A DNA stretch of 64,000 nt from positions 1 to 64,000 of the forward strand of contig JACKQL020000175.1 in assembly GCA_018296165.2 (NCBI GenBank), read 5' to 3'. The translations under genes were made by a program, and so were the position numbers. The notes beneath the pieces are model-generated. The model saw only the letters and a list, made by a program, of their open reading frames with translations. It did not search any database and had not been told where the DNA came from. Every line of letters begins with the position of its first letter. Positions within the stretch are counted from its first letter, which is position 1. This DNA is from Termitomyces sp. T153 (Eukaryota > Basidiomycota > Agaricomycetes > Agaricales > Lyophyllaceae). This document shows, in pieces, positions 39,133-49,738 of the stretch.

Positions 39133-39978
<846 letters not shown>

Positions 39979-40557: not shown

Positions 40558-43500
40558 CTACGATGGTGCCGCCACAGGCTGCGACCACCACGATAGCTTC
40601 CCGGACTTTGTCCCCGTCAAAAGGTATCCCTCACGATTCGTGGGTCCATCGAAGCTCTGGGAGGAATGAATCAAAGATGAATTAATGAATGGATGACTCC
40701 CGTTACATGGGTGTACGCACTGCAACAGCCTGAATGGTGTCACCTATACACACCATAAATGATCACATGAAGCGACAAGCCATTCAAGAAGACAAGTACG
40801 TACCCTCCTCGTGCTCAAGTCCATACACGATGACTGCCTTCTTTCGATCCCAGACTAGGACACATCCCTCTACGCTCCCGAACAAGACAGCTTGGCCCTC
40901 GGTTGCAAACACCGCACCAAAGCCATCAGGCGGTGTACCACTGGATTGCGATCTGTTTTCTTGTTCGTTGCACGAAAACGACCGCTCAACATCGCCCTTG
41001 TTGCCTGGTTTATGAATCCCAACGACATAGGCTTTTGATCCTAGACCCACGAGGACATGGGTGCCCGAAGGCGTCAGATCCAAAGTATAGCTTTCAGCAT
41101 AATCATCAGCATTTGCAAAGATAACTTGATTCATCGCCTTACATTCTGGACGAGAGAAAAGCGTATGCGCGTAAAGTGCCGTTGGGTATGTCGGAATGCC
41201 ACCTGCCAAACGAATGATGTAGATACCATGAGAAAACTAATGTAAACAACTCACACCACTCCATCGCGCGTTCCGCCAATGATAGCCGCTCCACCATCGA
41301 CAAATGTAATCGCAGTTACATTCTGTCGTAAGATAGATCTTTGAGCCTGCCAAGTCCCTGTGAGATTCCGTCAGCAATCAATCTAACAATTGCCCATCAT
41401 ACATATTCGTGGCACCTTTTGACCAGATCCACACTCTGACACCAACCCGTGGGTATGACACCGCTATTCGATCACGGACGTATGCCAAACATATCTTGTC
41501 GTCATCAGCTCTTCCGTCGTTCTTCCCAGCATCGAGCACCTTAGCCCACTGCCAATGATTTATGCCCTGCTTTGTCGATATCAATACCTGTGAAAGACGT
41601 TCTGACATTCCCAAAACCAAAAAACTTACACTCTTTGTCCACTTGCTGACGAGACCGTCTTCTCCGAGAGAGACAACACCTGCATCGCCTTCCATCCAAG
41701 CTACTGCTAGGACTGGAGAATTATGCGACAGGTTCGCAATTTCTTTCCTATTTCGGCTATTCCATATACGAATGGTCCGATCATTGCCTGTAGACAAGTG
41801 TAATCTGTTTGCTCAGTATATCAAAGTGAAAAGAAACTTACAGCTTAACGCAAAGTGACTTCCATCAGAACTGAAAGCTATATTCCGCACACCAACCTGG
41901 CCATCACCTACCAATCTAGTTGAATAATTACTATCAACCGTAGGCCATTTAAATATCCGCCTCTGTTTCTTCCGCGAAACGGGTTCAGGTGATCTAGGTC
42001 TTTCTCTCTTGACGCTTACGAAGGTAGGCTTTGGTGGGAGGGGGTGATTAAGTACAGGCGATATGTTCTTGGGCACTACAGGTGATAATAATGATGATAA
42101 CGAGAGAGGTGGTGCTGCAGATGCAAATGTCTCAGTCATTTGAACAGATCAACTCGGGATGTCAAAACTCACCAGGAGATTGGGAGACGAGAGTTGAAGT
42201 AGGAGATGTCGCGACTGAGTTGGAAGCAGGTGTGGACGTCTTGGAAAGAGCGGGGGCATCAGATATTCGGCTACGTAAGTCACGGCCGTTGCTTCTGACG
42301 GGTGCTGACGGTGTGGAAGTATTCAAGCTAGTTGAAGAAGGTGCTATTCTATCTTTCAATGAATCTGGAAGAATCAATACAACCCTACGGATCGAGTATG
42401 AGAGAGAACCTACTTGCTTGTGCCTTCTCAAGAAGTGGCGATCGTTGTATTCGACTTGGAGTCTTACCATTCTGATCCTGTTCGCTGACATTGTTCTTTG
42501 GAGGGGGGCATGGAGTGGTAGGGACACTTGCGGATGTGGTGGCTGGGGAGGCGGGTAGAGTGGCACTTACAAGCTTCCATTTATTTTCTGGAGCGGAGGA
42601 GGGAAGAGGTGGTGGCGCAGCAGATGGGGGAGTAGGTGTTAAATATGACACAATATGTGAAGTCATCGTTGGTGTAGATGGTGGAGCGGACGGTGTCACT
42701 GGCGCAGAACGAGGAAGGTCACCCGCAGGTCCATTATTATTTGTTGCTTTTACGAATGGCCGCCACTCACTTCCGACGACCAAACGTCTTTTAACTGGCG
42801 CTGAAGCTGGCGTCGATAATGTTTTAGGTGCGTTGGGTGGCATTCTTGGAGTGCTCCGAGGAAATTTACTCAAGGCAGCCACAGATACAGAAGGTCGAAT
42901 GCCCAATGGATTCGACGTCGGGCCAGACGGAATGTAAACTAATGATTTGGGATCTGGAGGCAGAGATTTGTGCGAATCCCTGACAGGAGATTTTTCGAGG
43001 GCTCGGCCACTTAGGATACGTGTGTGGATTCTTGGCCGAGTTGGAATCTTTGGAGACGGTACTTTACTGCTAGATGCAATGGCGTTCTGCATTGCAGTAG
43101 AAGGACAGGTAACCCTCGACTTCACAGCCGAAGAAGGGGAAGGGACAGGTATCGGGCGAGGCTGTAGTAAATGGGATGGCTTTCCCGAAGACAAAACGTC
43201 TGAAATGAAACAGAACTGGAACACCGAACAATGTGGAGGACTTACCTTAGAGTCATTGATTTTAGTCTCGAGACCATGACCACTTCCACTTGGTTTCTCA
43301 AACGGTACCCCAAAATCTGTTACAAATCCTCCTGATACAAAAGGGTTGTTCACTGCTGGTTTAACTGTATGTTCAGACCCCATGGCGATGTCCGAGGTCG
43401 GAGAGATACACGTGGCTAAAGATATCGCAGGAGTGTTCTGATGGGAAGGAAAGGCAGTCGCTTTGGAGTCATCAGCAAGCGTACCATTTATTGGAGGTGG

Positions 43501-44611
43501 TAGAGATTTGGCATCCGACAGAAGATCTTCCAGATGCAAGGTTGGTTTTATATCAATAGGAGACAATTGCATGTCTTGGGCGCCCGAACTGGACGCAATT
43601 GATAAGGTGGGCGAATATATGGGTGAAGGAACAGAAAGAGGAAAGAGATGTGGAATACACATGGATAGGGTAGAAACTGGTACCACAGGAGAAGGTTGAG
43701 GGGAGTCGGAGGGAGAATCGAGTTCCATAGGAGAAAGGCTTCGCTCTTTCTCCTCGTCCTAGTATGCATGAAAATTTAATAGGTGCATCAGGATTTCAGG
43801 GACATACGATGAGGTGAGGTCCCTGGTCCTCGTTTATACCTCTGCAATTTAAACCGACAGGAGTTAGTTCTGTCTCATTAAAAACGCCGACGTCACCACA
43901 CTGCGTCAACCCAGTCTGTACAGCGCTCGATATTCGGATAGGCGAAGGTAGATCAACCTGGACTGACACAGACGTAGACAATGAAGATGTTTGAGATGAT
44001 TCATCTTTGAAGAGCGATTCAGTCTGAGTTGATATCGAAACATGCGAACGTTCTGTCTGAACGCCAACAGAAGTCAGCGGAGGAGGTTGTTTTTTCGATA
44101 GTGCTAAGGAAGGAAATGATTGATGTGTCATAGTAATGATGAAAATTTAGAGTGACGCACAAGTGGCCGAAGTAAGATCATCAACCTTAGCCCATGCTCT
44201 ACGCATCTTGGGTGGAATCGCTTCTTTCACAGGTGGAACTAAGAACTTTTCTTTATCAGTGTCCTGTGGATTATCTTCCTTGTTTAAACGATCTCCAGAA
44301 GACTTGAGGTCACCCTCCATGACGACAGCTTGGTCTTTGAATGGCCCATTTTCCGCCTCCAGCATGAGAAGCAACTCTTTCCCTGGCTTAACTTCGATTC
44401 GTTTGTGCGCAATGAGCGTGAAACGCACGACTTTGCTGCCAAGTCCATCATTGTTGGAGTCGTTGGATACAGTGACGCGTCGCAAGATAATATGGGCCTT
44501 TTGAGTTGATCCATGGGGTCGAAAGCGAAGACCGCCTTTAATGCCCAATATTGACGCTACGGAAGAACCCAGATTGTTGTCATGCGCGCCAGAGACGCTG
44601 GAGTCCTCCAT
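40558..44611 (-). CDS. WD40-repeat protein with apparent LC8-binding motif array
   Basis: A long multi-exon gene. The N-terminal exon (MEDSSVSGAHDNNLGSSVAS...) encodes about 150 residues with an unrecognised compact region. After an intron with donor at 44158 comes a segment with five QT-type motifs: GVQTE, STQTE, SSQTS, SVQVD, AVQTG. Their glutamines are spaced 11, 11, 11 and 14 residues apart (43909-44075). A very long Pro/Ser/Thr-rich disordered region follows (about 41990-43720), with a basic KKQRR. The C-terminal third is a beta-propeller with DRTIRIWNSRNRKEIANLS, SPVLAVAW, LGEDGLVSKWTKS, VRVWIWSKG, GCVLVWDRKK and KSGKLSWWSQ. WD40 plus an N-terminal QT array recalls dynein intermediate chain, but the rest does not match it. 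Function unknown. Confidence 0.72.
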
Positions 44612-45436: not shown

Positions 45437-46444
45437 CTATTGTTTGTTTTCAATGAAATCCTTCACTTCTGGAACCCCGTCTCTCCATTGAATCCCAGAA
45501 AGTGCGGCGACCTCCATTGACATAGTACGAACAGTTCGTGCTTCCTCAATCGTTGCACCTCTCCTGCGAGCACCATCAAGGTGCCACTGAATCTGCCGAG
45601 GGCTATCGCTCGCTAAGGACACATTCGGATTAGAAAATTGCAATCGTTCAAATTTCGAGACATGTACTAACCGATAAGAGCTGCAACCAAGATATATGAC
45701 GTCTCCAGCGGCGACAAGATATCTGTAAAACCATAGGTCATACCATAACCAATCGTATTTGAGAACCATCCTGTCGGAAAGTGAATGATACACCACCAGC
45801 CACACGCGGAGAATTACCCATATCTGGATAGATAGTATCCAACAAGCCCTGAACCGACTCTGTTGTTTCGCCGTAGATACTACGGAAGAGGGCTCCACCA
45901 GTCTTTTCGTAGAATTCTATTGGAATATCCGTGCGTCTGGATTGCAAAATTCGTAACAATCACGAAGTGCGAAGTCAAATCATAGATCTTTACCTCAGAG
46001 TCTTGGTGTCGCGCAGCTCCTCAGGCATCACCTCATGCAAGGCAACAAGGCTATTAATTGTCTGCAGTGAAGGATGGGCCTTGTATTCCTTGTTGTATTA
46101 CATTGATAAAAAGCCCATAACTCACTCGAGCATAACCAGCAACCATGCCTGCCTTGAATAAGGCATCCCGCACTTTACGAGCCAGTAGACGATGATCGTC
46201 AAGTTTGTCGTTCTCCGCTTGAAGGTCTTTCAAAGCATATTTGAATACCCGAGGAACCTCCTCTACCCTATTGCTCGCACAGAATGCCACACTAGTGATG
46301 ATGTACCATGGATTAGTTACTACCGGTCATGGTATGAGAAATATGTCATGAATACTGAACTAAGAAGTCCTTCTCACAGCAGTCTCCTCGAGGATAAAGT
46401 GATTTCAGATGGGTGAGAAAGGAGGAAGTTGCAAGAACAGTCAT
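45437..46444 (-). CDS. Carboxymuconolactone decarboxylase-like (AhpD-fold) protein, copy 1
   Basis: Start MTVLATSSFLTHLKSLYPR, then WYIITSVAFCASNRVEEVPR, LLARKVRDALFKAGMVAGYA, PIEFYEKTGGALFRSIYGET and the C-terminal block SPRQIQWHLDGARRRGATIE, VRTMSMEVAALSGIQWRDGV. The WHLDGA-RRGAT block corresponds to the Hv-aln-Gas block of the CMD/AhpD fold, with its conserved His. The AhpD redox pair CxxC is not visible, so peroxidase activity is not supported. Substrate unknown. It shares exon order and most motifs with the gene at 48262-49312, so the two are tandem duplicates about 1.8 kb apart. At least five introns. Confidence 0.75.
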
Positions 46445-48261: not shown

Positions 48262-49312
48262 TTAACGTCCAATGCCTCCTGCTACTACGAGAGATTCCCC
48301 GACTTTCGGAATTTCATTCCTCCATTGAATGCCTGATCGTGCAGCGACTTTCATGGACATAGTACGAATGGACTGTACTTCTCCCAGCGTTGCCCCTCCC
48401 CTTTGAGCGCCATCGAGGTGCCACTGTATCTGTCGAGGATTATCGGTCGCTGAGAATGTAAATGTCAAATAGAATCGCGGCAACGCGAAGAATCAAATAG
48501 ACCAGTCCTTACCTGTAAGAGCTGCGATCATTGTATATGATGTCTCCAGCGGCGACAAAATGTCGGTAAACCCGTAATTCACACCATAAATGATACTTTT
48601 ATTAAACCATCCTGTGCAAAGGTTAGCAGTAGGCCCCAAAGTGACTCGCAATGGACTCACCCAGGTCTGGATAAATGTCGTTCATTAAATCCTGTATCGA
48701 ATCTGCTGTTTCGCCGTAAATCCTACGGAAAAGCGCTTTGCCAATCTTCTCATGCTCTTCGATAGGGGTTTCGGTACGCCTTGTCAAAATGACCACTATC
48801 AAAAGTTTTTCAAATCGCTGGAGTCGGAAGGACTCACCGCATCATTCTCGTGTCACGAAGTTCCTTAGGCATAACCTCATGCAGAGAAGCAAGACTGTTA
48901 ATGCTCTGTCAGAAAAACACACGGATTCAGTTAATTAACATTGGCTATTGTCTTGGACGTTTAGGATTGATATCCCTACCCTGGCAAATCCAGCTGTCAA
49001 TCCAGCCTTGAATAGGGCATCCCGAACTTTTCGAGCCAGCAGACGGTAATCTTCGATATCATCGCTCTCTGCCTCGAGATCCTTCAAAGCGTGTTGAAAG
49101 ACACGAGGAACTTCATCAGGTCTGTTACTCGCGCAAAAGCCCACGCTGGCAACGATATACCATGGATTTCCAACTGCAAGCAATGTATGAGATTTGCGTT
49201 GTGACACAAAAGTGTATGAAACAATCCTCATTGACTTACGGCGAGATATATTTTTTCGAGGATAGAGTGATTTCAAGTGGCGAAGAAAGGAGGGCGATGC
49301 AAGGGCAGACAT
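48262..49312 (-). CDS. Carboxymuconolactone decarboxylase-like (AhpD-fold) protein, copy 2
   Basis: Paralogue of the gene at 45437-46444. Start MSALASPSFLRHLKSLYPRK, then NPWYIVASVGFCASNRPDEV, LLARKVRDALFKAGLTAGFA, TPIEEHEKIGKALFRRIYGE and a C-terminal exon DNPRQIQWHLDGAQRGGATL, IRTMSMKVAARSGIQWRNEI, ending PKVGESLVVAGGIGR. The catalytic-type His in WHLDGA is kept and a CxxC pair is absent, as in copy 1. Introns interrupt at matching places. Upstream at about 49740 lies a short relic of a third copy, so the family has been expanding here. Confidence 0.75.
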
Positions 49313-49738
49313 GTCCAGGTTTTTCTGACTTGAGTCGGCTCCTGTTTAGTGGCTTTTATCAGTCGACTGTTTGGTCGAGATGACTCAACTCTGGGTCAGT
49401 TAGACGCTGATTTACAGAAGAACAAATGGAGAGAGACAAGAGTGGTCAAAATGGAGGGATTAGATCGATATGTCCAACTATGGGACCTCCCGTTCAATTG
49501 ACGCCGAGCATCAAATGATGGTTTAGTCTGGGTCGAGAAATTGAGCGGTGCTCGTCCATCGCGTACATGAGAACCTGCGGTCAAATGTTCAAATGTACGT
49601 TGAATATTGCTTCTGTGTACATCAGGATGTTATTGAAATTAATTATCAAGGCTGGGCCAACGATTCAAATGAGGATCATTATTGACTGAAAATACGGAAA
49701 CCCTCAATCGACTTGTAAGTTGTCTCCTGTGTCATATA

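What the first reader, a model, noticed from the sequence alone, without database searches (positions are those of the whole stretch)
43909..44075. Five evenly spaced LC8 (dynein light chain) anchor motifs in a WD40 protein
The deduced protein carries GVQTE, STQTE, SSQTS, SVQVD and AVQTG with glutamines exactly 11, 11, 11 and 14 residues apart. The LC8/Dyn2 consensus is a beta-strand centred on (T/V)QT or (I/V)QVD, and tandem motifs at about this spacing occur in established LC8 scaffolds (the Dyn2-binding region of yeast Nup159, the N-terminus of the dynein intermediate chain Pac11). Here the array follows a roughly 150-residue N-terminal region and precedes a very long disordered stretch and a C-terminal propeller. 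I do not know such a protein outside dynein intermediate chains. LC8 would zip two copies into a rigid parallel dimer. This could be an undescribed LC8-assembled scaffold, or a highly diverged dynein intermediate chain.
Basis: partly seen in the sequence, partly recalled or inferred. Interest (0 to 1): 0.78.

Follow-up and report, generated by a model that had tools for sequence, protein, structure and literature searches.

The report
Mushroom WD40 protein with LC8-type motif array
A mushroom protein of unknown function carries a row of evenly spaced short motifs that look like docking sites for the small dimeric adaptor LC8; the row recurs in many related fungi with the same 11-residue spacing but varying in number and strength, so it is probably an undescribed LC8-bound scaffold and not a dynein subunit.

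Summary
In the spliced minus-strand protein (1123 aa, identical to an annotated Termitomyces sp. T112 protein) the anchor glutamines are Q166, Q177, Q188, Q199 and Q213, spaced 11, 11, 11 and 14; 0 of 20000 shuffles gave three 11-residue links. The 11-residue step is a family feature: 94 orthologues were collected, the named ones Agaricomycetes. In 13 close relatives the five glutamines average 91% identity, against 34% for other glutamines of the disordered region and 41% for the rest of the array. Architecture: a small conserved N-terminal beta domain without a detected fold match, the disordered array, a long disordered tether, a generic propeller. It is not a dynein intermediate chain: the same genome has a separate true one, itself with an EVQT site, plus a canonical LC8. 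Array length varies from one anchor in some Russulales to 16 in Cyathus. The weak point: position +1 is A (VQA) as often as T across the family, 9 of 76 orthologues have no QT/QV anchor in the segment, and no binding could be tested. Best reading: an undescribed multivalent LC8 client, a new member of a known kind.

The parts
40558..44611 (-). Whole gene, 13 exons (44161-44611, 43808-44103, 43246-43758, 42414-43179, 42173-42364, 41842-42114, 41630-41787, 41416-41566, 41255-41357, 41143-41202, 40804-41090, 40721-40743, 40558-40656), 1123 aa
   Evidence: Translation equals P0001 (Termitomyces sp. T112 E4T56_gene9735) without a difference
44297..44563 (-). N-terminal conserved beta domain, residues 17-105
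   Evidence: AF2 model of the domain: 10-residue blocks 82-90 from 21 to 100 except one at 62; 75% mean identity in 13 relatives; no useful Pfam, PDB-sequence or fold match
43808..44103 (-). Exon 2, holding the motif array
   Evidence: in frame with exon 1 across a GT-AG intron; the identical P0001 implies the same splice
43910..44074 (-). LC8-type motif array, residues 161-215
44057..44059 (-). Anchor Q166, motif 1 TSVGVQTE
   Evidence: Q 92% identical in 13 relatives, 90% or more in 58 orthologues
44024..44026 (-). Anchor Q177, motif 2 VSISTQTE
   Evidence: Q 77% identical, but +1 only 23%
43991..43993 (-). Anchor Q188, motif 3 KDESSQTS
   Evidence: Q 100% identical
43958..43960 (-). Anchor Q199, motif 4 TSVSVQVD
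   Evidence: Q 100% identical
43916..43918 (-). Anchor Q213, motif 5 ISSAVQTG
   Evidence: Q 85% identical
43699..43746 (-). Conserved block ERSLSPMELDSPSDSP (residues 254-269) after the array; possible proline-directed phosphorylation sites (inference)
   Evidence: conserved block, coordinates; S256-M260 nearly invariant
41957..42010 (-). Basic patch KRERPRSPEPVSRKKQRR (residues 775-792) before the propeller, possible nuclear localisation signal (inference)
   Evidence: K775/R776 nearly invariant; no localisation test
40573..41944 (-). C-terminal WD40 beta-propeller, residues about 797-1119, seven blades by my count of 28 strands

Best explanation
The array is a multivalent binding site for the dimeric hub protein LC8 in an undescribed protein family of Agaricomycetes. 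Two copies of the disordered segment (residues about 160-216) are clamped in parallel by stacked LC8 dimers, one per motif; 11 residues is an 8-residue LC8 motif (-5 to +2) plus a 3-residue linker. This zips together two N-terminal beta domains and, through a disordered tether of about 580 residues, two propellers. Motifs 1, 2 and 4 should be the main sites, 3 and 5 weaker ones. Shown here: motifs, spacing, splice, predicted disorder, anchor conservation, presence of LC8. Inferred: LC8 binding, dimerisation, the role of the scaffold.
For: Anchors and spacing are confirmed and not chance. Anchor Qs 91% identical in 13 chosen close relatives against 34% for 14 other Qs of the disordered region and 41% for non-anchor array residues. 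Predicted disordered (10-residue blocks 30-33 over residues 161-220). Motif 1 shares its VQT anchor with the tested binders SON, MAST1 and ZFPM1 (table 2 of PMC6607443). -4 is S in 67% of 293 units and no P lies between -4 and +1 in T, V or A units. T and V units have D/E at +2 in 38% and 55%, as LC8 prefers. A rough LC8 matrix finds 33 sites above its threshold in 81 segments against a mean of 3.9 and a maximum of 10 in 50 shuffles. In Cyathus (P0028) 9 of 16 anchors are QT followed by E, and in Hohenbuehelia (P0026) 4 of the 7 exactly spaced anchors are QT followed by D or E. The genome has a canonical LC8, and its true dynein intermediate chain carries NKEVQTTT. A 3-residue linker has precedent in ASCIZ QT2,3, 6- and 9-residue linkers in QT4-6 (passages).
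Against: +1 is A in 34% of 293 units, as often as T (31%); I saw no tested LC8 binder with QA in the passages read, and the one QA peptide of the tables, SSQANLS, did not bind. A units, not T units, have the more LC8-like large -3 (70% against 51%). 9 of 76 orthologues have no [VITSACMG]Q[TV] anchor in the segment (one of them, P0050, has an incomplete N-terminus). The Punctularia expansion is QA/QV, mostly followed by hydrophobic residues or A. In the 23 tips from P0065 to P0061 of the tree, Boletales, Polyporales and Russulales as far as named, no exact 11-residue run exceeds two. The rough matrix built from 18 binders puts motifs 1-3 inside the binder range (12.0, 13.6, 10.3), motif 4 at its low end (7.4) and motif 5 below (4.7), but 18 of the 29 non-binders scored reach the lowest binder score, so it has little power; 57 of 81 orthologue segments have no site above its lower binder quartile. 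No binding or complex was tested.
Confidence: 0.62

Rival explanations
1. The 11-residue unit (S-x-x-[VI]-Q-[A/T/V]) is a docking array for another beta-groove partner, and its likeness to LC8 sites in Termitomyces is partial convergence.
For: The first unit is the family-wide element (Q166 90% or more in 58 orthologues), and the first anchor has A at +1 in 38 of 73 segments with three or more anchors; VQAQ/IQAQ units dominate in Phellopilus; hydrophobic +2 in Punctularia.
Against: +2 D/E enrichment appears where +1 is T or V; most Cyathus and Hohenbuehelia units are LC8-like; disordered context and LC8-sized spacing. I know of no other fungal hub with this specificity (recalled, not searched).
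Confidence: 0.25
2. Low-complexity Ser/Val/Gln tandem repeat with no partner, drifting by slippage.
For: Copy number varies widely; composition is simple.
Against: Anchor Qs are conserved far above other residues; the 11 step is kept while sequence between anchors is replaced.
Confidence: 0.08
3. A highly diverged dynein intermediate chain.
For: WD40 domain at the C-terminus and LC8-type motifs nearer the N-terminus.
Against: Separate true intermediate chain at G000:C37:221072-222272, 49-65% identical over three exon matches, with an N-terminal basic stretch and one EVQT site; best BLASTP match of this protein to a human DYNC1I2 fragment is 41 generic WD40 residues, E 0.004.
Confidence: 0.02
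4. An SQ/TQ cluster for ATM/ATR-type kinases.
For: STQTE and SSQTS contain TQ and SQ.
Against: -1 is S or T in only 20% of 293 units; V or I in 72%.
Confidence: 0.02

Closest known systems
Nup159 Dyn2-interacting segment (yeast)
   Same: Five LC8-type sites in a disordered segment, seen as a row of five stacked LC8 densities (passages of PMC5963919)
   Different: Nup159 has its propeller at the N-terminus and FG repeats (recalled); here the propeller is C-terminal, the N-domain has no known relative, and copy number varies between orthologues
ASCIZ/ATMIN
   Same: Many LC8 sites (11 in human, 7 in Drosophila), short to mid linkers among others (passages)
   Different: ASCIZ is a zinc-finger transcription factor (recalled in part) with irregular linkers; here the step is regular and no zinc finger was found by Pfam
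EML3
   Same: WD40 propeller protein with an N-terminal LC8 site proved by AAA replacement (passages of PMC13349382; the site was dispensable in mice)
   Different: One TQT site, N-terminal coiled coil and tandem propeller in EML proteins; the EML propeller model scores only 31.2 bits here against a cut-off of 88.2
Dynein intermediate chain (DYNC1I2/Pac11)
   Same: LC8-type site(s) before a C-terminal propeller
   Different: Sequence and N-terminus unlike; the genome has its own true chain

Membership tests
Multivalent LC8 clients | Several anchors with Q at 0 and mid-sized residue at -1 and +1 | tested here: met
   5 of 5 in the window protein (V/T/S-Q-T/V); across the family +1 is A in 34% of 293 units
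Multivalent LC8 clients | Site lies in intrinsically disordered chain | tested here: met
   AF2 pLDDT blocks 30-33 over residues 161-220; a prediction only
Multivalent LC8 clients | Flanks fit: polar -4, large -3, D/E/P at +2, no hydrophobic residue at +2 | tested here: inconclusive
   Motifs 1, 2, 4 fit; 3 has SQT and S at +2; 5 has small -3 and G at +2 (rules)
Multivalent LC8 clients | Anchors conserved in orthologues | tested here: inconclusive
   Q and spacing conserved; number and +1 residue not
Multivalent LC8 clients | Organism encodes LC8 with intact binding strand | tested here: met
   G000:C39:246109-246306 over the Pfam cut-off; NFGSYVTHETKHFIYFY as in animal LC8 (last exon joined by hand, splice site seen)
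Multivalent LC8 clients | Measured binding to LC8 | not testable with these tools
   No complex prediction or experiment was available
Dynein intermediate chain | Propeller sequence of the intermediate-chain family | tested here: not met
   true chain elsewhere in the genome
Dynein intermediate chain | N-terminal basic stretch (MSDKRRAEIEAKRQKL type) | tested here: not met
   Present in the true chain, absent here; that it defines the family is recalled
Nup159 | N-terminal propeller (recalled) | tested here: not met
   Propeller at about residues 797-1119, only a small beta domain at the N-terminus
EML family | EML propeller over the Pfam cut-off | tested here: not met
   PF23409 31.2 bits against 88.2

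The most novel reading that the evidence does not exclude
An old mushroom-specific scaffold whose LC8-type array is a tunable ruler: units of 11 residues have been added and lost repeatedly (from one to 16 anchors), and the ancestral anchor is VQA, an anchor class not among the tested LC8 binders that I read, so either LC8 accepts a weak A anchor when arrayed at 3-residue linkers, or these fungi have another array-reading hub.
Probability: 0.25. Interest if true: 0.62.

Novelty: new member of a known kind. Interest (0 to 1): 0.45.

Why it matters
Multivalent LC8 clients with many motifs are few (passages name Nup159, Chica, Bassoon and ASCIZ). A family across Agaricomycetes with an almost metronomic 11-residue step and natural lengths from one to 16 anchors would let one test how motif number and linker length set LC8 assembly, using natural variants. 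It would also give a first handle on an uncharacterised protein conserved in mushrooms.

Tried and rejected

Rows dropped: of the 120 proteins listed (242 found) I kept 66; of 29 new ones I kept 25, and of 14 new ones I kept 3; the rest (P0067-P0120, P0146-P0149, P0153-P0163) were dropped as other WD40 proteins by name, coverage or score. One search used the 76 orthologues longer than 950 aa; branch supports were not examined, only tip order. The 13 relatives were chosen by me as near relatives with a readable N-terminus.

Full report
Observation. The finding lies on the minus strand. A 13-exon model from 44611 to 40558 gives 1123 residues and is identical, without one difference, to P0001, a hypothetical protein of Termitomyces sp. 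T112. The anchors are Q166, Q177, Q188, Q199 and Q213 in exon 2, which splices in frame to exon 1. Composition shuffles of the segment reached three 11-residue links in 0 of 20000 and five anchors in 5 of 20000.

Architecture. AlphaFold2 on an alignment of 58 orthologues gives a small beta domain (about residues 20-100), a chain with pLDDT mostly under 50 from 107 to about 758, the array included (blocks 30-33), and a propeller at about 797-1119, seven blades by my count of strands, with most blocks at 90-97. The propeller is generic WD40 by sequence and fold. The N-domain alone (27 sequences; blocks 82-90 from 21 to 100 with one at 62) matches no Pfam family usefully and no solved fold. Blocks of the tether are conserved, such as ERSLSPMELDSP, NNPFVSGGFVT and SGPTSNPLGIRP, and a basic patch precedes the propeller.

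Family. Three searches gave 94 proteins that I take as orthologues (66, 25 and 3 new ones). The named ones are Agaricomycetes as far as I recall; lineages were looked up only for Termitomyces, Punctularia and Phellopilus. Candidates were capped in each search and one search listed 120 of 242, so absence elsewhere is not shown. In 81 of 91 segments between the N-domain and the SLSPM block (ten dropped for lack of the end motif; segments without SLSPM cut at 120 residues), Q-Q pairs at lag 11 number 213 against 41 expected, at lag 22 150 against 36; lags 10 and 12 fall below expectation, while lags 2, 9, 13, 15, 20 and 26 exceed it with z 3 to 6. The sequences are related, so z overstates significance. 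Runs of three or more anchors at exactly 11 residues occur in 44 of 94 proteins.

Constraint. In 13 chosen near relatives the five anchor Qs are identical in 92, 77, 100, 100 and 85% (mean 91%). The means are 83% at -2, 74% at -4, 71% at -1, 63% at +1, 41% for array residues away from anchors, 41% for the rest of the disordered region, and 34% for its 14 other Qs. The alignment may favour matching Qs, which inflates this somewhat; two of the 14 other Qs are also well conserved (0.85, 0.92).

What the units look like. Of 293 chained units (71 of 81 segments) -4 is S in 67%, -1 is V 54, I 18, T 12 and S 8%, and +1 is A 34, T 31, V 17 and S 6%. +2 is D or E in 38% of 90 T units and 55% of 51 V units but 20% of 98 A units; a large -3, which LC8 also favours, is in 51, 65 and 70% (rules). 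So T and V units fit LC8 better at +2, A units better at -3. In the 73 segments with three or more anchors the first has A at +1 in 38 and the last has T in 47.

Number of units. Cyathus (P0028) has 16 anchors in one row, 9 of them QT followed by E, with steps of 11 but for one 12, one 14 and one 10; Hohenbuehelia (P0026) has seven exactly spaced ones, 4 of them QT followed by D or E; Punctularia (P0128) has nine, of QA/QV type and mostly followed by hydrophobic residues or A; Coniferiporia (P0135) has a run of eight and Phellopilus (P0151) about ten, mostly VQAQ or IQAQ, in two runs joined by a 12-residue step. The four that are in the quick tree are not neighbours in tip order, which suggests separate expansions. 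In the 23 tips from P0065 to P0061, Boletales, Polyporales and Russulales as far as named (orders recalled), no exact run exceeds two, and 9 of all 76 proteins have no QT/QV anchor in the segment. So spacing and Q are kept, while number and strength are not.

LC8 and dynein in the same genome. One LC8 exon passes the Pfam cut-off, and the protein joined by hand carries the NFGSYVTHETKHFIYFY strand of animal LC8. A true dynein intermediate chain sits on another contig, 49-65% identical to the human one over three exon matches, with an N-terminal basic stretch and a single NKEVQTTT site in the frames read.

Mechanism. LC8 motifs span -5 to +2, so an 11-residue step leaves a 3-residue linker and the last step of 14 leaves six; both lengths occur in Drosophila ASCIZ (passages of PMC10046861). 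VQT or VQC anchors bind LC8 in other proteins: SON, MAST1 and ZFPM1 (table 2 of PMC6607443) and gephyrin GVQC (passage of PMC12057147). I therefore expect stacked LC8 dimers to pair two chains in parallel and to place two N-domains side by side. Binding is inferred, not shown. A matrix made from 18 binders places motifs 1-3 within the binder range, 4 at the low end and 5 below, but 18 of 29 non-binders scored reach that range too.

Print. In the held open-access library I found no description of the protein (LC8 with basidiomycete and dynein light chain, 12 of 444 papers listed; four locus tags, 0 papers; WD40 with LC8, fungal and TQT motif, 5 papers, by title and abstract). Most subscription journals were not searched. 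PMC6607443 was read in its outline, the first two of four parts of Results and one section; the others cited in passages only.

Verdict. The LC8 reading is the most likely one (0.62), weakened by the frequent A at +1. It is most likely a new, uncharacterised member of the known kind of multivalent LC8 clients.

Noticed in passing
window 39275-39600, minus strand: A Ras-superfamily small GTPase gene (Pfam Ras, 89 bits; looks like CDC42, name recalled) lies next to the gene. The Arthromyces orthologue P0010 carries Ras-family domains, as if both genes were merged in annotation, which hints at a conserved neighbourhood.
   Followed up: partly
window 45437-46400 and 48270-49345, minus strand: Two genes alike in sequence by eye, apparently a tandem duplicate; one joined by hand gives only a sub-threshold match to the carboxymuconolactone decarboxylase family (13.8 bits, cut-off 23).
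   Followed up: partly
window 44297-44563: The N-terminal domain (LGIKG.LRFRPHGSTQKAHVVLRRV...KRIEVKPGKEILL) is better conserved than the propeller (75% against 55% in 13 relatives) and has no detected family or fold.
   Followed up: partly
L004 (G000:C37:219572-222703): True dynein intermediate chain with one LC8-type site, NKEVQTTT; the PF11540 search did not find it.
   Followed up: yes
L019 (G000:C37:241372-241692): An unrelated long frame with a repeat of the type GSKETHNQSIP, several copies in a row.
   Followed up: no
P0128 (Punctularia), residues about 158-320: Expanded array of SVxVQ[AV]-like units, mostly with A, V, I, M or F after the anchor triad, a poor fit to LC8 and a good candidate for testing another partner.
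   Followed up: no
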